Virus record (IMG/VR): IMGVR_UViG_3300046321_000416
Coordinates: 1 to 20,922 of that record
Source: a virus
Strand: one strand, 5' to 3'
DNA: 20,922 nucleotides
Shown piece by piece: positions 362-10,438 of this stretch. Position numbers and translations under genes: made by a program. The notes beneath the pieces are model-generated. The model worked only from the letters and a program-made list of their open reading frames with translations. It was not told the DNA's origin and ran no database searches. Each line of letters opens with the position of its first letter. Within the stretch, counting starts at the first letter, position 1.

Positions 362-1168
362 ATGAATTATAATTTAATATATCAGAAAATTATAAATAAT
401 CGTCAAACAAATCCGTTAGAAAATGGTCTATATGGAGAAAAACATCACATATTACCAAAGTCTTTGGGAGGAACAAATAAAAAGATTAATATAGTAAAAC
501 TTTCTGCAAGAGAGCATTTCATATGTCACTATCTGTTAATGAAAATGCAAAAACCTTATACCCCTGCTTGGTACAAAATGACCCAAGAATTTTTTATGAT
601 GGGTTCTTATAAAAATGAAAAAAGGTATGTAAATTCTAGATTATATTCGTTCCAGAAAGAAAAATTTTCTGAAACAGCTAAACATAGAATTAAAACAAAC
701 AGCCCTACTACAAATAAAAAATGGGTGTATAATGTGATTAACGGAAATTCTTTTTTGATATCCAAATTTTCTGATATTCCTAAAAATTGTGCTCGTGGAA
801 AACATAAAAAAGTAAAGAAAAATAAAGAAAAATCGTGTAAAACTTGCGGTCAAGCAAAAAATCATCTACATTTTGATGTATGTAATTTGCATTTAACTTT
901 GAGATCCTTAGAAAATACTTTTAATGTAGATTTACACATAGGAACACCTGGTGTTAAACATAAATATGAAGAATTTAAAAAATTATTAATTTATAAATAT
1001 AATAATGGAATGAGTATTGAGAACATTAAATCCGAGTACAAAATCTCTTCAAACGAAAGATTGCGTTGTATTTTTAGAAAAATAGGAATAAAACGAAAAT
1101 CTCTTTCGGTTGCAGTTAGTAATTATCACAATAGTTTAATTGGCAAAACGCAGGTCTCCAAAACCTGA
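362..1168 (+). CDS. HNH homing endonuclease whose 3' end encodes half of a tRNA-Trp
   Basis: This 268-residue protein has an N-terminal HNH nuclease core: the HH pair at residues 28-29 (EKHHILPKSLGG), then NIVKLSAREHFICHYLL with a second histidine cluster at 52-56. A CxxC...C/H cluster near residues 157-177 may be a zinc finger for DNA recognition. The C-terminal part is lysine-rich and likely binds DNA. The start is the ATG 4 bases after GGAG. Its last 14 codons and its stop lie inside the tRNA-Trp gene at 1125-1199. A 15-base direct repeat links the orphan tRNA half upstream with this tRNA. The layout suggests a mobile gene that targets the tRNA-Trp anticodon and carries a replacement 5' half, so that the tRNA survives insertion. 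Early translation is probably blocked by the 336-358 hairpin. The family is clear; the target site is inferred. Confidence 0.85.
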   Translation: MNYNLIYQKIINNRQTNPLENGLYGEKHHILPKSLGGTNKKINIVKLSAREHFICHYLLMKMQKPYTPAWYKMTQEFFMMGSYKNEKRYVNSRLYSFQKEKFSETAKHRIKTNSPTTNKKWVYNVINGNSFLISKFSDIPKNCARGKHKKVKKNKEKSCKTCGQAKNHLHFDVCNLHLTLRSLENTFNVDLHIGTPGVKHKYEEFKKLLIYKYNNGMSIENIKSEYKISSNERLRCIFRKIGIKRKSLSVAVSNYHNSLIGKTQVSKT

Positions 1169-1245: not shown

Positions 1246-2280
1246 ATGAAAACACATGTAGCTATAGTACGAGATCATTCTGCCTCAATGGGACATCTTG
1301 CAAACAAAGCATTACAAGATTACAACAAAACATTAGACGCCATTAAAAACACTTCGGGTGTTGAAACCTACTTATCAGTCATTAATTGTGCTGGAAATAA
1401 TTCAGCTTTGGCTCGAGTCGTTTCATCAAACGAAAGAATCTCAATTGCCCAGCCTCTTCAAAGATATGATACATCCGGCGGTGGGACGCCGCTTTATGAT
1501 GCTGTTGGGGGCGCTATTTCTACTCTTGAAAAGGGAGGAATGGGCGAAACAATTTATCAAAGAAAAGATTTGATTAAAACGGAAGATACTGATGCTTATT
1601 TGATCATGGTTATTACTGACGGTCAAGAAAATGCATCCTTTGTTTGGAACAAGCAACGTCTGGCAAATAAGATTAATGAACTTGATAAAACAGGAAGATG
1701 GACTATTGTTTTTCGTGTTCCCAAAGGTTGCTCAAGAGTTATTCAGCAAATGGGTATTCCTGCTCATAACATTATGGAATGGGATCAAAACGAACAGGCA
1801 TTAGAACAGGCAACTGTGCAGAATGTTTCTGCAGTTGAAACTTATTTTAATGAAAGATCAAAAGGCGTTACAAGGTCAACTTCATTCTATGCAGACCTTG
1901 CAAATTTGTCGAATAGTGATTTGTCGAAAGTGGTTGACACCACTGATAGATTTGATGTCTATTGGGTTTCGAATAAACATCATAGATATGAAATTAGACC
2001 TTACTTTGAAGATGTTTTGAAAAGATCATATGATAAAGGAAGAGCATATTATCAATTAAATAAACCTGAGAAAGTGCAACATCATAAAGACATTGCAATT
2101 CGTGATAAAACCTCAGGTAAGATTTACGAAGGATATAATGCAAAATCTTTATTGGGATTACCTCAATACGAAGATTTTAAATTGAAGCCCGGGGATATGG
2201 GACAATATGATTTGTTTGTGCAATCAACATCTATTAATAGAAAAATAGAAGAAAACACTTGCATATTGTATAAAAGATAA
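1246..2280 (+). CDS. VWA-domain (MIDAS) protein
   Basis: The 344-residue protein opens with a von Willebrand factor A domain. The metal-site motif reads DHSAS at residues 10-14 (DxSxS). It is followed by the threonine motif in GGTPLYDA near 79-86 and the aspartate motif VITDGQEN near 122-129. Such domains bind Mg2+ and mediate protein-protein contacts, often in chaperone or stress complexes. The C-terminal 150 residues (from about 195) match no domain I know and have no membrane segment. The start ATG is preceded by AAGGAT. No partner AAA+ ATPase is visible next to it, so the role is open. VWA proteins of this kind occur in T4-like phages. Confidence 0.75.
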   Translation: MKTHVAIVRDHSASMGHLANKALQDYNKTLDAIKNTSGVETYLSVINCAGNNSALARVVSSNERISIAQPLQRYDTSGGGTPLYDAVGGAISTLEKGGMGETIYQRKDLIKTEDTDAYLIMVITDGQENASFVWNKQRLANKINELDKTGRWTIVFRVPKGCSRVIQQMGIPAHNIMEWDQNEQALEQATVQNVSAVETYFNERSKGVTRSTSFYADLANLSNSDLSKVVDTTDRFDVYWVSNKHHRYEIRPYFEDVLKRSYDKGRAYYQLNKPEKVQHHKDIAIRDKTSGKIYEGYNAKSLLGLPQYEDFKLKPGDMGQYDLFVQSTSINRKIEENTCILYKR

Positions 2281-2910: not shown

Positions 2911-2954
2911 TAATGACAGGTCATTATATGGAAAAGTAAATTTATAATAGAACT

Positions 2955-3095
2955 CGTCTGGAGTGAGTGTCGGCATTTAAATTGTACATAAAAATTTGCC
3001 TAAGACATGTGATTATCTGTTGTGAAACACAGAAATAGCTGCGGTGCGGAATCACGTAAACCGCCTGACAATTTAGTAATTGTCATAGCCAGACG
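2955..3095 (+). ncRNA. Structured RNA with predicted pseudoknot, unassigned
   Basis: About 140 bases with no convincing frame fold into a closed domain. CGTCTGG (2955-2961) pairs with CCAGACG (3089-3095). Inside, in order, are a hairpin at 2972-3000 (GGC/GCC plus AAATT/AATTT), a helix GTGATT (3009-3014)/AATCAC (3050-3055) that contains hairpin TCTGT/ACAGA (3016-3033), and a perfect hairpin TGACAATT/AATTGTCA (3066-3085). GCGGT (3041-3045) can pair with ACCGC (3060-3064) across the second helix, making an H-type pseudoknot. I match this to no known riboswitch or ribozyme. T4 also carries stable non-tRNA RNAs in its tRNA cluster, which is the nearest precedent. Confidence 0.45.
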
Positions 3096-3109
3096 TTAAA
3101 TTTTATATT

Positions 3110-3196
3110 GCTGGATTGGCTGAATGGTTGAAAGCAACGGTTTTGTAAGCCGTCTGAGAAATCACGTTGCAAGTTCGAATCTTGTGTCCAGCACCA
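3110..3196 (+). tRNA. Class II tRNA with Thr anticodon (TGT)
   Basis: Acceptor GCTGGAT/GTCCAGC is complete with one wobble. The D arm is GCT/AGC with a large loop, the anticodon stem ACGGT/GCCGT has loop TTTGTAA (anticodon TGT), and the T stem GCAAG/CTTGT has loop TTCGAAT. Discriminator A and CCA are encoded. The variable region is 15 bases with a small TGA/TCA stem, and the D region (TGGCTGAATGGTTGAAAGC) resembles Ser tRNAs. Yet G1-C72, C2-G71, G35 and U36 are the known Thr identity elements. Charging with Thr is the better guess; Ser is the alternative. Confidence 0.85.
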
Positions 3197-3201
3197 TTTT
3201 A

Positions 3202-3313
3202 AGGATCAGTTCCGCAAAATTTCGGTCTGTAAAACCAGGGGTCGTTGGTTCGAATCCAACAATTGCAGAAATGTAATTTAGCTCAGTTGGATAGAGCACT
3301 TAAAAATGATCCT
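3202..3313 (+). ncRNA. Flanking scaffold enclosing the permuted tRNA
   Basis: AGGATCA (3202-3208) pairs with TGATCCT (3307-3313) and brackets the permuted tRNA. Between the left arm and the tRNA lie GTTCCGCA and AAATTTC; between the tRNA and the right arm lies TAAAAA. In the folded RNA this helix leaves the tRNA between positions 28 and 29 of the anticodon stem, the place where a processing enzyme would have to cut and rejoin. It is the third copy of the scaffold seen at 2300-2356 and 2366-2417. Confidence 0.55.
3224..3300 (+). tRNA. Circularly permuted tRNA-Tyr (anticodon GTA)
   Basis: The halves are in reverse order. Bases 3224-3267 are positions 29-72: GGT, loop CTGTAAA, ACCAG, variable GGGTC, T stem GTTGG/CCAAC with loop TTCGAAT, and acceptor AATTGCA. 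After GAAA (3268-3271), bases 3272-3300 are positions 1-28: acceptor TGTAATT, TA, D stem GCTC/GAGC with loop AGTTGGATA, A26 and CT. TGTAATT pairs with AATTGCA at all seven positions (one wobble). CT joined to GGT makes CTGGT, which pairs perfectly with ACCAG. Every tRNA element is present once the halves are rejoined. CCA is not encoded, and the acceptor ends are linked by a GNRA-type tetraloop. Maturation would need cutting at the tetraloop and joining of 28 to 29. The body is class I, although bacterial Tyr tRNAs are normally class II. Confidence 0.8.
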
Positions 3314-3335
3314 GTTGTAAAATAAAGGAGACTTT

Positions 3336-5385: not shown

Positions 5386-5823
5386 ATGAAAAAAATTGGA
5401 TTTACAGCAAGTGCGTTTGATTTATTTCATGCCGGACATGTTGAGATGTTAGAAGAAGCTAAAAAACACTGTGATTGGTTGATAGTAGGGCTGCATTCTG
5501 ACCCTAATATTGATAGACCTACAAAAAATAAACCCATTCAGTCCTTAATTGAGAGGCAATTGCAAGTTAGGGCATGTAAATATGTGGATGAAATCATAGT
5601 ATATGATACAGAAAATGATTTGCAAATACTGCTTGACATTTTGCCAATAGATGTTAGATTTGTAGGAGAAGAATACAAAGGCAAAGATTTTACTGGCGGA
5701 CCCTCTTCAAATATAGGTAGTTATTATATCCATTATAATCGGAGAAATCATAAATTCAGTAGCACTGAATTAAAAGAAAGAATCAAAAATGATAATCAAA
5801 CAAATGGATATGGGGTTAGTTAG
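5386..5823 (+). CDS. Cytidylyltransferase, glycerol-3-phosphate type (TagD-like)
   Basis: The 145-residue protein has the nucleotidyltransferase HxGH motif at FHAGH (residues 14-18), the conserved GLHSDP region near 36-41, and SSTELKER near 124-131, which matches the ISSTxxK signature that contacts the nucleotide. TagD-type enzymes couple CTP with glycerol-3-phosphate to make CDP-glycerol. The fold also includes NMN and pantetheine adenylyltransferases, so the substrate is not certain. The length is close to the usual 130-145. It could feed a surface-polymer or DNA-modification pathway, or take part in nucleotide metabolism with the NMN adenylyltransferase gene two genes downstream. It overlaps the next gene by 35 bases. 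Confidence 0.8.
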   Translation: MKKIGFTASAFDLFHAGHVEMLEEAKKHCDWLIVGLHSDPNIDRPTKNKPIQSLIERQLQVRACKYVDEIIVYDTENDLQILLDILPIDVRFVGEEYKGKDFTGGPSSNIGSYYIHYNRRNHKFSSTELKERIKNDNQTNGYGVS

Positions 5824-6280
5824 AGATTTAATTTTAAAAGCCCCGAATAAGGCTCGTTTTTATATTGGTTCAGACTCTGAAAGATTTAAAAAACAAGGTG
5901 TCTGGCATGCTCGATATACTACAGTTGTGGTTATGCATATGGGTGGATTGGGTAATAGAGTTTTTGGACATGTTGAAGACGAAAGAGATTATGACCAAGT
6001 AAAAAATCGTCCTAAAATGCGGTTGATGAATGAAATTATCAAAACTGCTAATATGTATTTAAATCTTGCTGATGTCTTAGACGAAAGAATTGTTGAAATT
6101 CATTTGGATATTTCAGAAAATAAGAAAAATGGTTCTTCTTGTGTTGCTCAAGAAGCAATAGGTTATATTCAAGGTATGTGTAATATTGTCCCGATGACCA
6201 AACCTAATTCTTGGGCGGCCTCATTTGCCGCAGATAGATATGATACCATTGACCGTGAGGCAAGAAAAGTTGCCTCATAA
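5789..6280 (+). CDS. YkuK-like RNase H fold protein (DUF458)
   Basis: The 163-residue protein carries FYIGSDSERF near residues 24-33, an acidic strand EIHLDISENKKNGSS near 103-117, and EAIGYIQGMCNIVPMTKPNSWAASFAADR near 122-150. This layout matches the YkuK/DUF458 family, predicted to have an RNase H-like fold with acidic residues on the first and middle strands. Nuclease activity has not been firmly shown for the family as far as I know. The chosen ATG overlaps the upstream gene by 35 bases; later ATGs at 5804 and 5810 are possible but lack ribosome sites. A late-promoter-like octamer spans the stop codon. Confidence 0.75.
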   Translation: MIIKQMDMGLVRDLILKAPNKARFYIGSDSERFKKQGVWHARYTTVVVMHMGGLGNRVFGHVEDERDYDQVKNRPKMRLMNEIIKTANMYLNLADVLDERIVEIHLDISENKKNGSSCVAQEAIGYIQGMCNIVPMTKPNSWAASFAADRYDTIDREARKVAS

Positions 6281-6283
6281 ATA
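6276..6283 (+). promoter_or_regulatory. Late-promoter-like CATAAATA before the NAD genes
   Basis: The octamer covers the stop codon of the YkuK-like gene and lies 46 bases before the NMN adenylyltransferase start. It would allow separate late expression of the NAD pair. NAD genes might be expected early, so this site is more doubtful than the one at 19502. Confidence 0.3.
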
Positions 6284-6329
6284 AATATGATCAGGATAGA
6301 CTGATTTAACATTAATAGTAGGAGTTACT

Positions 6330-7394
6330 ATGCAAGATCTTGTAGTATATGTTGGAAGATTTCAACCGTTTCATCGTGGGCATTTGTCTGTTATTATCAA
6401 AGCTTTTCAGGTTTCTAAACGTGTTTTGGTTTTAGTTGGTTCGGCAAACGAACCACGTTCTTTGAGAAATCCTTTTACTTTTGATGAAAGAAAAGACATG
6501 ATATTGTCATGTCTAAATGATGAACAAAGGAGCGTTATTGATATTCAGGGCTTAGAAAATTCACTTTATAATGATGATTTATGGGTGACCAATGTTCAAT
6601 CATGTGTTGCCGCTGCATATGAACATTTCTTCGAAGGTTGGAAGGGGCTAGCAGATACTAAAGCTTTAGTATCTTTGATTGGGCATTCAAAAGATAATTC
6701 CTCCTTTTATTTAAAATTGTTTCCTCAATGGGGTTCTATTGAGGTTCCAAACTTCTTTGATATTTCTTCAACAGAAATTCGTAAAGGTTTGTTTAAAAAA
6801 TATGAAATGGGTGTTAACCCATTTCCAGGCAACAAACATCTGAAAGATTATGTTCCTGATTCTGTTGCCGATGCTGTTTCAAACTATTTCATCAAAACAA
6901 AAGAATACAAATCTCTTGTTGAAGAAAACGAATTTATCACAAACTACAAAAAGCAATGGGAAAATTCTCCTTATCCTCCAACATTTGTTACCGTTGATGC
7001 TGTTGTTACTCAATCAGGTCATATTTTGTTGATTAAACGTAAAAGCGAACCCGGTAAAGGTTTGTGGGCGTTGCCAGGAGGTTTCATTGGAAAAGATGAA
7101 AAAATTGTTGATTCTATGATTCGTGAGTTGAGAGAAGAAACGAAGATTAAAATTCCCGCTCCAGTATTAAAAGGAAGTATTGTAAAGTCTTCAGTATTTG
7201 ATGATCCAAACAGGTCTATGAGAGGAAGAACAATCACGCATGCTTATCATATAGCACTTCCGCATAACACTGAATTGCCTTATGTTAAAGGTTCAGATGA
7301 TGCTGATAAGGCAAAGTGGTGGCCACTTTCTGAGGTAAAGCGCGAGATGATGTATGAGGATCATCTAGATATTATTTTAAATATGGTAGTGTAA
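6330..7394 (+). CDS. nadM: Bifunctional NMN adenylyltransferase / Nudix hydrolase
   Basis: The 354-residue protein has two domains. Residues 1-190 form a NadM-type NMN adenylyltransferase: GRFQPFHRGH (9-18) with the HxGH motif, NPFTFDERKDMI near 48-59, and ISSTEIRK near 147-154. From about 205 a Nudix domain follows, with Nudix box GGFIGKDEKIVDSMIRELREET at about 250-271 holding the REXXEE core. The first domain makes NAD from NMN and ATP. The Nudix domain of related NadM fusions hydrolyses ADP-ribose or its derivatives. AGGAG seven bases before the ATG supports the start. Together with nicotinamide phosphoribosyltransferase downstream it gives a two-step route to NAD. Similar pairs occur in many T4-like phages (KVP40-type NatV). 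Confidence 0.93.
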   Translation: MQDLVVYVGRFQPFHRGHLSVIIKAFQVSKRVLVLVGSANEPRSLRNPFTFDERKDMILSCLNDEQRSVIDIQGLENSLYNDDLWVTNVQSCVAAAYEHFFEGWKGLADTKALVSLIGHSKDNSSFYLKLFPQWGSIEVPNFFDISSTEIRKGLFKKYEMGVNPFPGNKHLKDYVPDSVADAVSNYFIKTKEYKSLVEENEFITNYKKQWENSPYPPTFVTVDAVVTQSGHILLIKRKSEPGKGLWALPGGFIGKDEKIVDSMIRELREETKIKIPAPVLKGSIVKSSVFDDPNRSMRGRTITHAYHIALPHNTELPYVKGSDDADKAKWWPLSEVKREMMYEDHLDIILNMVV

Positions 7395-7472
7395 ATGTAT
7401 GAAACTATTAAAACATTTACAAAATTTAAACGATAGACGTTTATTCAATAATCGATAAAGGAGATTTATCAC

Positions 7473-8888
7473 ATGCACAATCTTATTTTAAACACCGACT
7501 CCTACAAAGCAAGCCATTGGGTGCAATATCCCCCAAAAACAGAATATGTGTATTCATATATTGAATCACGGGGTGGTGTATTTGACCGCACAGTGTTTTT
7601 TGGTTTGCAGATGTTTATTAAACAATATCTTCTTAAACCTATTACACGAGAAAATATTGATGAAGCTGAAGATATTTTTACGAAGCACGGAGAACCCTTC
7701 AATCGTGAAGGATGGGAGCATATTTTATACAATCACCGCGGGTATCTGCCTTTGATTATTAGGGCTGTTCCCGAGGGTTTTGTGGTGAATAATCATAACG
7801 TTTTAGCTACGATTGAAAATACTGATCCAAAATGTTATTGGTTGACTTCATATATGGAATCAGCAATTTTGCGAGCAATTTGGTATCCTTCAACTGTTGC
7901 TACATTGTCTTGGCATTGCAAAAAATTAATCAAAGAATATATTAATAAAACTTCCGACAACCCAGAACAAATTGATTTTAAATTACATGATTTTGGATCT
8001 CGGGGGGTTTCCTCATATGAATCTGCTGGTATTGGTGGTTTGGCTCACTTAACGAACTTCAAAGGCACGGACACTGTCTCCGCCTTGAAATATGCTAGGG
8101 AATTTTATGGTTCTGATATGGCGGCATTCTCTATTCCCGCGGCAGAACACAGCACAATCACTTCCTGGGGGAAAGAATTTGAAAAGGAGGCATATAACAA
8201 CATGCTATCACATTTTCTTTCTAAAGGAAAGATGGTTGCTGTTGTGTCTGATAGTTATGATCTGTGGAATGCTGTTGACAATATTTGGGGAAAAGATCTT
8301 ATTGATATTGTCAAAAACTCAGGAGGTACTTTAATTGTCCGTCCCGACTCAGGTGATCCTTTGGTTGTACCTATTCAGACAATTATAAGATTGTCAAAAA
8401 CTTTTGGCTTTACAATTAACTCAAAAGGTTATAGAGTTCTACATGATTCAGTAAGGGTCATTCAAGGCGATGGCATCACATATGAGTCTCTACCAATTAT
8501 TCTTAAAAATCTAGAAATGGCAGGTTTCGCCATAGACAATTTAACCTTTGGCATGGGAGGCGGATTGTTGCAGCAATGTAATAGAGATACCTTGAAATTT
8601 GCAATGAAAACCTCTAATGTAACTATTGATGGTGTTGATAAAGAAGTGTTTAAAGACCCAATCACTGATTCTGGTAAAAAATCAAAATCTGGCAAATTTT
8701 CATTAATTAGTCAAGGTAATAAAAACTTCGAAACTTTGAAAGTTTTTAATCATTGGGAAAATTGGTTGCATACAGCATACAAACATTATGGGCCTGGCAT
8801 TCCCGAGGTTAGAATTAACTCTTTGGAAGATGTTCGAAATAACACACAATATTTTTTAGGGATGGCGATTAATGATGGAGACAAATAA
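7473..8888 (+). CDS. nadV: Nicotinamide phosphoribosyltransferase
   Basis: The 471-residue protein is a full-length NAMPT, which makes NMN from nicotinamide and PRPP. It keeps the family landmarks: LNTDSYKASHW at the N-terminus, HDFGSRGVSS near 168-177, FKGTDTVSA with the substrate aspartate, PAAEHSTITSWG with the catalytic histidine (His247 in the human enzyme), VVSDSYD, IVRPDSGDPL with the ring-binding Arg/Asp, VIQGDGI, GMGGGLLQ and KSKSGKFSL. The length matches bacterial and phage homologues. AAAGGAG lies 8-9 bases before the ATG. It is spaced 78 bases from the adenylyltransferase gene and probably shares its transcript. The product keeps the host NAD pool up during infection. Confidence 0.96.
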   Translation: MHNLILNTDSYKASHWVQYPPKTEYVYSYIESRGGVFDRTVFFGLQMFIKQYLLKPITRENIDEAEDIFTKHGEPFNREGWEHILYNHRGYLPLIIRAVPEGFVVNNHNVLATIENTDPKCYWLTSYMESAILRAIWYPSTVATLSWHCKKLIKEYINKTSDNPEQIDFKLHDFGSRGVSSYESAGIGGLAHLTNFKGTDTVSALKYAREFYGSDMAAFSIPAAEHSTITSWGKEFEKEAYNNMLSHFLSKGKMVAVVSDSYDLWNAVDNIWGKDLIDIVKNSGGTLIVRPDSGDPLVVPIQTIIRLSKTFGFTINSKGYRVLHDSVRVIQGDGITYESLPIILKNLEMAGFAIDNLTFGMGGGLLQQCNRDTLKFAMKTSNVTIDGVDKEVFKDPITDSGKKSKSGKFSLISQGNKNFETLKVFNHWENWLHTAYKHYGPGIPEVRINSLEDVRNNTQYFLGMAINDGDK

Positions 8889-9361: not shown

Positions 9362-10438
9362 ATGTCTGAAAGAAAACTTGTAACTATTCGTAAAATTTCT
9401 GAAATTAAACCTATTCCAGATGCAGATGCAATTGAAATTGCAATCGTTGATGGTTGGCAATGTGTTGTAAAGAAAAACACATTCAAAGTAGGAGATTTTG
9501 CGTTTTATTTTGAAATTGATTCTTTCCTCCCAACAGATCGTGAAGAGTTTTCCTTTCTTAAACCTGCAAACGGCAAAAAAACTGTTTACAATGGAATTGA
9601 AGGCCATAGATTGCGCACCATTAAATTGCGCAAGCAATTGAGTCAAGGTTTATTGATTCCAGCTGAAAATCATTTGCCGCTTGAAGGCAAATCAGACAAA
9701 ACAATTGACTCCGAAGATTTGAATATTGATTACAGTATAGATTTTGGGGTACAAAAATGGGAAGCTCCTATTCCTGCGCAACTTGCAGGTTCTGTTAAAT
9801 CTACTTTTCCCTCTTATATCATACCTAAAACTGATCAGGAAAGAATACAAAATATTATTGGTGATGTGTATGAAGAAGTAATGCAAGTTAACACAAAGTT
9901 CGAAGTGACCCTTAAACTTGATGGTTCTTCTATGACTGTTTATTCGTACAATGATGTTATCGGTGTTTGTTCTCGAAATATGGAACTCGTTGAGAATGAA
10001 GATAACACTTTTTGGAAAACTGCAAAATCTTCTGGTTCTATTGAATGGTTAAAAAGACAAGGTCATAATTATGCAATTCAAGGGGAGCTTATGGGGCCTG
10101 GTATTCAAGGCAATTCGGAAAATCTAAAAGAACATCAATTTTTTGTATATGATATTTATGATATTGACGAAAAAAGATACTTAACTTCTACAGAAAGATT
10201 GTCTATTTGGCCCTTTGACCACGTTCCTGTATATTCTACAATGAAGTTGTTTCAAGGCACTTTTAATGAAGACAAATCAACTTCATCAAAAAAATATTTA
10301 CTGGAATATCTTCTTGATCTTGCTGTCGGGTCCTCTTTGAATTCATCGGTGCGAGAAGGTTTAGTGTTCAAATCAACCTTCAATCCCAGCTTTAGTTTTA
10401 AAGTCATTTCTAACGAATTTTTATTAAAGGAAAAATAA
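9362..10438 (+). CDS. RNA ligase, Rnl5/DraRnl-like
   Basis: The 358-residue protein is a covalent nucleotidyltransferase. Motif I is KLDGSS with lysine at residue 185, the site of AMP attachment. QGELMGPGIQGN near 239-250 fits motifs III/IIIa, EGLVFKST near 337-344 motif IV, and SFKVIS near 349-354 motif V. The N-terminal 150 residues (VTIRKISEIKPIPDADAIEIAIVDGWQ) resemble the OB-fold domain that precedes the ligase domain in Deinococcus-type Rnl5 ligases. Those enzymes seal 3'-OH/5'-phosphate nicks in RNA duplexes. A phage could use it to repair tRNAs cut by host defences, or here perhaps to join the permuted tRNA-Tyr; the second idea is speculation. The stop overlaps the next start (TAATG). 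Confidence 0.85.
   Translation: MSERKLVTIRKISEIKPIPDADAIEIAIVDGWQCVVKKNTFKVGDFAFYFEIDSFLPTDREEFSFLKPANGKKTVYNGIEGHRLRTIKLRKQLSQGLLIPAENHLPLEGKSDKTIDSEDLNIDYSIDFGVQKWEAPIPAQLAGSVKSTFPSYIIPKTDQERIQNIIGDVYEEVMQVNTKFEVTLKLDGSSMTVYSYNDVIGVCSRNMELVENEDNTFWKTAKSSGSIEWLKRQGHNYAIQGELMGPGIQGNSENLKEHQFFVYDIYDIDEKRYLTSTERLSIWPFDHVPVYSTMKLFQGTFNEDKSTSSKKYLLEYLLDLAVGSSLNSSVREGLVFKSTFNPSFSFKVISNEFLLKEK

What the first reader, a model, noticed from the sequence alone, without database searches (positions are those of the whole stretch)
3202..3313. Circularly permuted tRNA-Tyr gene in a phage, with GAAA-capped acceptor stem
The 3' half (positions 29-72) precedes the 5' half (1-28). All stems pair after rejoining: seven acceptor pairs, a four-pair D stem, an anticodon stem CTGGT/ACCAG made from both halves, and a five-pair T stem. 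Acceptor ends are joined by GAAA, and a 7-bp flanking helix leaves the anticodon stem at 28/29. Permuted tRNAs are established in some algae and archaea, where a bulge-helix-bulge site is cut and joined through a circular intermediate. I know of no characterised phage case. The break in the anticodon stem and the tetraloop differ from known examples, so this may be a new processing route or an RNA that uses a tRNA fold for another purpose.
Basis: partly seen in the sequence, partly recalled or inferred. Interest (0 to 1): 0.92.

Follow-up and report, generated by a model that had tools for sequence, protein, structure and literature searches.

The report
Phage tRNA-mimic RNA, Y-RNA-like family
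The "scrambled tRNA gene" is real, but it is best read as one member of a large, apparently uncatalogued family of tRNA look-alike RNAs, carried by phages and bacteria beside a little-studied relative (DUF2828) of the Ro60 protein, rather than as a working tRNA.

Summary
Window 3202-3316 holds a complete permuted tRNA cloverleaf, 28 of 28 pairs standard, with the acceptor closed by GAAA and a 7-bp flanking helix. A covariance model built from 16 other viral elements, window excluded, finds it at 99.1 bits (E 1e-24); ordinary tRNA pairs score about 26-41.

It is probably not a permuted tRNA gene. Its core matches Rfam YrlA (Y RNA, E 6e-7, below the gathering score). Database scans gave about 97 relatives sharing a scaffold, helix-CAGCAA-tRNA mimic-helix-CUNGU, with strong covariation (745 double-sided changes; shuffles 217). 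Unlike classical phage Y RNAs, which sit by Ro60 (TROVE) genes, these track another protein: DUF2828 occurs in 35 of 51 viral records against 2 of 46 controls, TROVE in 1 of 50. All 34 element-DUF2828 pairs in phage loci are on one strand. DUF2828 is a divergent Ro60: its predicted fold's best PDB matches are Ro autoantigens.

So this looks like a new Y-RNA-like class: a DUF2828-linked scaffold displaying a tRNA mimic, here with an intact anticodon arm (GUA). Binding to DUF2828, and a role in RNA quality control, repair or decoying tRNA nucleases, are inferred. The 20.9-kb fragment itself contains no DUF2828 gene.

The parts
3202..3208 (+). 5' strand of scaffold helix (AGGATCA)
   Evidence: pairs 7/7 with 3307-3313; the outer five pairs of this helix are 98.4% paired with covariation in 76 elements, the inner three 72.9%
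3212..3217 (+). conserved scaffold motif CCGCAA (family consensus CAGCAA)
   Evidence: CCGCAA variants also occur in L099 and L126, whose loci encode DUF2828
3224..3236 (+). anticodon hairpin GGT-CTGTAAA-ACC (tRNA positions 29-41; U33, anticodon GUA)
   Evidence: helix 91.5% paired with covariation; the same hairpin GGTCTGTAAAACC occurs in a DUF2828-adjacent unit of a Chloroflexi MAG, L329
3237..3238 (+). positions 42-43 (AG), pairing with 3299-3300
   Evidence: 99.3% paired, covarying
3239..3243 (+). variable loop GGGTC, 5 nt (class I)
3244..3260 (+). T arm GTTGG-TTCGAAT-CCAAC
3261..3278 (+). acceptor hairpin AATTGCA-GAAA-TGTAATT (ends closed by a GNRA tetraloop, no CCA)
   Evidence: 7/7 pairs; helix 98.3% paired, all 7 pairs covarying
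3281..3297 (+). D arm GCTC-AGTTGGATA-GAGC
3299..3300 (+). positions 27-28 (CT)
   Evidence: pairs with 3237-3238
3307..3316 (+). 3' strand of scaffold helix and tail (TGATCCT-GTT; family CT-N-GT)
9362..10438 (+). RNA ligase with PHA02142 OB-fold domain (context gene)
   Evidence: Pfam PF21189 and PF09414; 6 of 7 relatives found in fetched loci lie 0.2-5 kb from a DUF2828 gene; in phage GAP32 the ligase gene directly precedes it
1246..2280 (+). protein with an N-terminal DHSASM motif, read as von Willebrand A-like (context gene; no Pfam match)
   Evidence: sequence; its two other relatives, L288 and L129, both lie in DUF2828 loci

Best explanation
The element is a small non-coding RNA of about 115 nt belonging to a family of Y-RNA-like tRNA mimics. 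Its two ends form a scaffold (short helix, CAGCAA-type motif, CUNGU tail). From this hangs a closed, permuted tRNA cloverleaf, with the acceptor sealed by GAAA and an anticodon arm kept at a three-way junction. Shown by computation: the structure, its conservation and covariation, the scaffold, the genetic linkage of the family to DUF2828, and the Ro60-like fold of DUF2828. Inferred: the scaffold is the binding site of the DUF2828 protein, as the Y RNA stem is for Ro60, and the mimic is the effector end. That end would tether or gate an RNA-processing enzyme, or present tRNA features to RNA-repair enzymes or tRNA nucleases, as part of an RNA quality-control or repair particle used by the phage in infection. 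RNA ligase genes lie near several phage DUF2828 genes and RtcB beside several bacterial ones. It is not expected to become a translating tRNA.
For: Independent covariance model hit, 99.1 bits, E 1.1e-24. Covariation in 76 elements: 95.7% of cells paired, covariation score 0.846 against 0.201 in shuffles and at most 0.149 with slid partners. YrlA match 3236-3303, E 6e-7. DUF2828 in 35/51 class-B records against 2/46 controls (Fisher 1e-11); TROVE in 1/50 against 13/20 in the first pattern set. Bacterial class-B units lie next to DUF2828 genes on the same strand in Treponema, Akkermansia, Clostridia and others, and the 20 such genomes searched have no TROVE. All 34 phage element-DUF2828 pairs are on the same strand, most within 1 kb. 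The DUF2828 model (pLDDT 84.8) matches Ro autoantigen 1yvr best, E 4e-8, and the top ten hits are all Ro60 or TROVE; hhalign against TROVE gives 97.8% probability. RtcB within 0.5 kb of DUF2828 in three loci from Treponema genomes; RNA ligase within 0.2-5 kb in six phage loci. Near relatives of the window scaffold (L126, L129, L094) lie in DUF2828 loci.
Against: The window fragment has no detectable DUF2828, so the partner in this phage is predicted, not seen. No expression or binding data exist. CAGCAA frequency in the family is partly selected for, since one of the three viral scans and the genome scan used that motif; members were also found without it. The covariation alignment was fitted to the structure. 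The minimum-energy fold of the single sequence differs. 16 class-B records, the window's own among them, lack a DUF2828 match, including some above 60 kb. KVP40 and Aeh1 encode DUF2828 but showed no scaffold unit in the 20 kb examined.
Confidence: 0.85

Rival explanations
1. A true circularly permuted tRNA-Tyr gene, cut and joined at 28/29 into a functional tRNA by a new route.
For: Complete anticodon arm with U33 and purine 37; 51 of 52 full hairpins in the family have U33 (the score slightly favoured T there). 16 of 67 relatives with acceptor loops of 5 nt or more start with N-CCA, against about 1 expected, as if some kept or descended from a CCA end.
Against: In the window the acceptor ends are fused by GAAA with no CCA. 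Linker lengths on both sides vary between relatives (roughly 4-20 and 2-28 nt) and the break lies at 28/29, 29/30 or in the loop, so there is no fixed splice site or bulge-helix-bulge. GUA with a 5-nt variable loop does not fit bacterial tRNA-Tyr (own knowledge). Other units of the same scaffold carry only a T arm or other short payloads that could never be tRNAs.
Confidence: 0.06
2. A classical YrlA-type Y RNA binding a true Ro60 (TROVE) protein encoded elsewhere in the phage or by the host.
For: Rfam YrlA match; the same permuted architecture in TROVE-linked phage Y RNAs, many of which also have an anticodon-like hairpin.
Against: Below the YrlA gathering score (37 against 69). GNCGNA-type sequence in the 5' flank: 24/59 TROVE-linked elements, 0/97 class B. 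TROVE in 1/50 class-B viral records and 0/20 class-B bacterial genomes. The window scaffold is of the class-B type.
Confidence: 0.06
3. A chance or decayed junction of two neighbouring tRNA genes (3' half of one, 5' half of the next), without function.
For: It lies in a tRNA gene cluster; a tandem duplication would place T arm, acceptor, spacer, acceptor and D arm in this order and could explain N-CCA loops in relatives.
Against: The two halves match each other in the acceptor (7/7) and at 27-28/42-43, and a scaffold helix encloses them. 99.1 bits against about 26-41 for ordinary tRNA pairs. Covariation and DUF2828 linkage of the family. Tandem junctions remain a plausible evolutionary source.
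Confidence: 0.02

Closest known systems
YrlA / bacterial Y RNA (Rfam RF02553) with Rsr/Ro60
   Same: Permuted tRNA-like module (T arm, acceptor hairpin, D arm) on a basal stem formed by both RNA ends; association with a helical-repeat-plus-vWA protein; RtcB neighbourhood in some bacteria.
   Different: Family partner is DUF2828, not TROVE; scaffold motif CAGCAA/CUNGU instead of the Ro-type motif; a complete anticodon arm is present, whereas YrlA is described as mimicking D, T and acceptor arms (PMC8394870); below the Rfam gathering score.
Phage Y RNAs next to TROVE genes (class A of this report)
   Same: Same permuted cloverleaf with closed acceptor; most have a 2-3 bp anticodon-like hairpin.
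   Different: Different scaffold and different partner gene; the two sets are nearly exclusive (class B 25 DUF2828 and 2 TROVE of 80 loci; other permuted elements 1 and 39 of 72).
Circularly permuted tRNA genes of algae and archaea
   Same: 3' half before 5' half; all cloverleaf stems restored on rejoining.
   Different: No bulge-helix-bulge, no CCA or spacer at the acceptor end in the window, variable linkers, and a conserved flanking scaffold tied to a protein gene.
tmRNA (including two-piece permuted tmRNA)
   Same: tRNA-like RNA that is not a tRNA; permuted forms exist (own knowledge).
   Different: Complete anticodon and D arms, about 115 nt, no tag reading frame; ARAGORN and Rfam report no tmRNA here.

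Membership tests
YrlA Y RNA (RF02553) | Reaches the family's gathering score | tested here: not met
   37 bits against 69
YrlA Y RNA (RF02553) | tRNA-like module with T, acceptor and D arms in permuted order | tested here: met
   cmscan alignment 3236-3303, E 6e-7
YrlA Y RNA (RF02553) | Ro-binding-type motif (GNCGNA) in the basal stem | tested here: not met
   absent from the window element; 0/97 class B, 24/59 TROVE-linked elements; the motif itself is recalled from the literature
YrlA Y RNA (RF02553) | Ro60/Rsr (TROVE) gene in the same genome or locus | tested here: not met
   none in the 20.9-kb fragment (inconclusive alone); 1/50 class-B viral records, 0/20 class-B bacterial genomes
YrlA Y RNA (RF02553) | Binds Rsr and PNPase | not testable with these tools
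   needs biochemistry
DUF2828-linked tRNA-mimic RNA (class B, this report) | Full-length match to a covariance model built without it | tested here: met
   99.1 bits, E 1.1e-24, positions 1-117 of 117
DUF2828-linked tRNA-mimic RNA (class B, this report) | Scaffold helix, C(A/C)GCAA motif, CUNGU tail | tested here: met
   AGGATCA..CCGCAA..TGATCCTGTT
DUF2828-linked tRNA-mimic RNA (class B, this report) | DUF2828 gene in the same genome | tested here: inconclusive
   not in the 20.9-kb fragment; relatives of two window genes flank DUF2828 in other phages
Circularly permuted tRNA gene | 3' half precedes 5' half and all stems re-form | tested here: met
   28/28 pairs
Circularly permuted tRNA gene | Bulge-helix-bulge or other fixed junction for excision and joining | tested here: not met
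   linker lengths and break point vary among relatives
Circularly permuted tRNA gene | Acceptor end that can mature (discriminator plus CCA or trimmed spacer) | tested here: not met
   GAAA tetraloop in the window; N-CCA only in 16 of 67 relatives with longer loops
Circularly permuted tRNA gene | Mature, joined tRNA present in cells | not testable with these tools
   needs RNA sequencing

The most novel reading that the evidence does not exclude
Phages and bacteria with DUF2828 carry arrays of RNAs in which one protein-binding scaffold displays a library of tRNA parts: whole permuted mimics with different anticodons, T arms, and possibly anticodon stem-loops alone. Together they may act as decoys, sensors or repair platforms against enzymes that cut tRNAs, for example host anticodon nucleases triggered by infection.
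Probability: 0.3. Interest if true: 0.92.

Novelty: new variant of a known kind. Interest (0 to 1): 0.82.

Why it matters
Ro60 and Y RNA are a conserved but poorly understood RNA quality-control pair. A second, separate pair, DUF2828 with its own tRNA-mimic RNA, in jumbo and other phages and in Treponema, Akkermansia and Clostridia, would be a major extension of this system. It would give a function lead to DUF2828, for which the library searched held no bacterial or phage paper, and make concrete why a phage needs tRNA mimics. Because tRNA finders and Rfam pass over these RNAs, they are probably unannotated in many genomes, including well-studied ones such as Cronobacter phage GAP32. The anticodon arm, not described for YrlA in the review read, points to the anticodon end as a part that matters, which is where many defence nucleases cut (own knowledge).

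Tried and rejected
T4 stable RNAs C and D as relatives: rejected, T arm at the 3' end of RNA C and no permuted order. The window vWA-like protein as the RNA's partner or as a Ro60: no Pfam match; a direct search for its relatives in viral contigs found none; only indirect linkage. BLAST with the element alone finds mostly ordinary tRNA pairs. The 79-aa downstream protein as a conserved neighbour: its relatives' loci showed no credible family member. Two control phages with DUF2828 (G090, G091): no credible unit found. KVP40, Aeh1 and nt-1 encode DUF2828; weak model hits there (37-46 bits) are in or near the range of ordinary tRNA pairs and I do not claim them. The model R1 alone does not separate class B from class A (class A 59-91 bits), so class was assigned by scaffold motif and gene linkage. 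Papers naming DUF2828: four, judged plant studies from titles and abstracts, not opened.

Full report
1. What is there. All 28 pairs are standard; 20,000 shuffles of the same bases reached at most 21. ARAGORN finds six ordinary tRNAs in the window and not this element. Rfam's YrlA model (bacterial Y RNA) matches 3236-3303 at 37 bits, E 6e-7, below its gathering score of 69. This was the first sign that the arrangement is a tRNA mimic. YrlA is described as a basal stem that tethers Rsr/Ro60 plus a domain resembling the D, T and acceptor arms of tRNA (PMC8394870).

2. Relatives. A pattern scan of viral contigs for T arm, ten bases, GAAA, seven bases and D arm returned 20 contigs, most with true permuted modules; 13 of the 20 encode a TROVE (Ro60) protein. 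They fall into two main classes. Class A resembles known Y RNAs. Class B, 97 elements with a scaffold helix found (the window counted, through L001), has helix, CAGCAA, linker, anticodon hairpin, T arm, acceptor hairpin, D arm, linker, helix, CUNGU. Linker lengths vary and the break lies at 28/29, 29/30 or within the anticodon loop. The window element belongs to class B, with CCGCAA in place of CAGCAA; the same variant is seen in L099 and L126.

3. Independent test. A covariance model made from 16 class-B elements without the window hits the window once, full length, at 99.1 bits, E 1.1e-24. Ordinary tRNA gene pairs score about 26-41 bits (T4's 27-28) and class-A Y RNAs 59-91. On 76 matches, 95.7% of pair cells are standard, with 745 double-sided changes (shuffles 217) and a covariation score of 0.846 (shuffles 0.201; slid partners at most 0.149). 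Every helix except the D stem, which is invariant, shows double-sided changes. The alignment was fitted to the structure, so these numbers lean towards it; the slid controls and the model test limit that concern.

4. Partner gene. A genome-collection scan for the class-B pattern gave 32 loci, most with class-B units, in Treponema, Akkermansia, Clostridia, Bacilli and others. Those examined sit next to a 500-590 aa protein that matches Pfam DUF2828 and DUF7788 with a vWA motif, on the same strand; of the loci with a detected unit nearly all encode it within the stretch held, at most 8 kb. The 20 class-B genomes tested have no TROVE. In viral records with class B (the window's own included), DUF2828 is found in 35 of 51, against 2 of 46 controls and none of the class-A records among them (Fisher 1e-11); TROVE is found in 1 of 50. 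Within fetched loci, 80 class-B loci hold 25 DUF2828 and 2 TROVE, while 72 other permuted loci hold 1 and 39. All 34 element-DUF2828 pairs in phage loci lie on the same strand, most within 1 kb.

5. What DUF2828 is. An AlphaFold model of the T. zioleckii protein (pLDDT 84.8) has its ten best PDB matches all in Ro60 or TROVE structures, best 1yvr at E 4e-8; TM-scores are moderate, about 0.4-0.5. Profile comparison with TROVE gives 97.8% probability over the vWA part. DUF2828 therefore looks like a distant Ro60 relative. RtcB lies within 0.5 kb of it in three Treponema loci; relatives of the window's RNA ligase lie within 0.2-5 kb of it in six phage loci. In GAP32 the ligase gene directly precedes it. 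Both outside relatives of the window's vWA-like protein are also in DUF2828 loci. This supports, but does not show, that the window's phage encodes DUF2828 outside the 20.9 kb held. The window's DNA polymerase is about 48% identical to those of marine and cyanobacterial T4-like phages.

6. The payload. Class-B and class-A mimics nearly all pair 27-28 with 42-43 (91 of 96 and 58 of 59). 52 of 96 class-B elements have a full 3-bp hairpin with a 7-nt loop, and 51 of those have U33; random sequence gives two junction pairs plus a 3-bp hairpin in 8% of trials under the same search. Many loops end U36-A37-A38, like tRNAs for A-starting codons. The window's GUA hairpin recurs letter for letter in a Chloroflexi MAG unit, L329. 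Acceptor loops are often stable tetraloops; 16 of 67 longer loops begin N-CCA, consistent with an origin from tandemly duplicated tRNA genes (inference). Scaffold units with other payloads exist: a T arm alone in several Treponema loci, and short or class-II-like payloads in GAP32, CBB and BF, where control motifs of the same letters gave no unit. Some short payloads look like anticodon stem-loops by eye; I did not test this systematically.

7. Mechanism. Best supported: a Y-RNA-like particle in which DUF2828 binds the scaffold and the mimic is the effector end. By analogy with the Rsr-YrlA-PNPase machine (PMC8394870) it may tether or gate an RNA-processing enzyme. The RNA-ligase and RtcB neighbourhoods suggest RNA repair. 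The anticodon arm suggests competition with, or sensing of, tRNA-cutting nucleases, an idea already raised for YrlA in Salmonella (PMC7790460). Binding and function are inferences. A functional permuted tRNA is unlikely here for the reasons given under the rivals.

8. Novelty. Rfam 15 has no family that captures the window element at its threshold; the literature library returned four papers naming DUF2828, which read as plant studies from titles and abstracts, and no report of permuted tRNA mimics linked to it in the searches made. Key Y RNA papers were not held, so prior mention cannot be excluded. I rate it a new variant of a known kind.

Noticed in passing
window 2950-3100: Intergenic stretch between two tRNA genes that folds as one long closed structure (CGTCTGG near 2955 pairing with CCAGACG near 3090; -43.0 kcal/mol for 168 nt). 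No Rfam match. Possibly another structured RNA.
   Followed up: partly
window 3110-3196 and 2824-2900: A tRNA with Thr anticodon UGU that carries a long variable region, and a tRNA with Leu anticodon UAG that appears to lack one; the reverse of the usual pattern. Relatives of the first are annotated tRNA-Thr in Salmonella and Escherichia phages.
   Followed up: no
window 5386-8888: Nucleotide metabolism genes: a cytidylyltransferase-like gene, a fused cytidylyltransferase-like/NUDIX gene, and a gene that looks like nicotinamide phosphoribosyltransferase, suggesting NAD+ salvage of the kind that can counter NAD-depleting defences (function from sequence and own knowledge).
   Followed up: no
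window 362-1168: ORF with an HNH-like EKHHILPKSLGG motif, possibly a free-standing homing endonuclease in the tRNA region; no Pfam match at threshold.
   Followed up: no
L314, L305, L318, L328, L332, L335 (Treponema genomes and MAGs): A 55-nt unit, AAGATTY-AAACAGCAA...T arm...GAATCTT-GTTTG, next to DUF2828: the same scaffold holding only a T arm.
   Followed up: partly
L392, L393, L394 (phages GAP32, CBB, BF): Several scaffold units each in the 20-kb tRNA regions of these jumbo phages, with differing payloads.
   Followed up: partly
L002, L005-L009, L013, L014, L018, L020, L021 and others: Phage Y RNAs beside TROVE genes often also carry an anticodon-like hairpin, which the review read here does not mention for YrlA.
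   Followed up: partly
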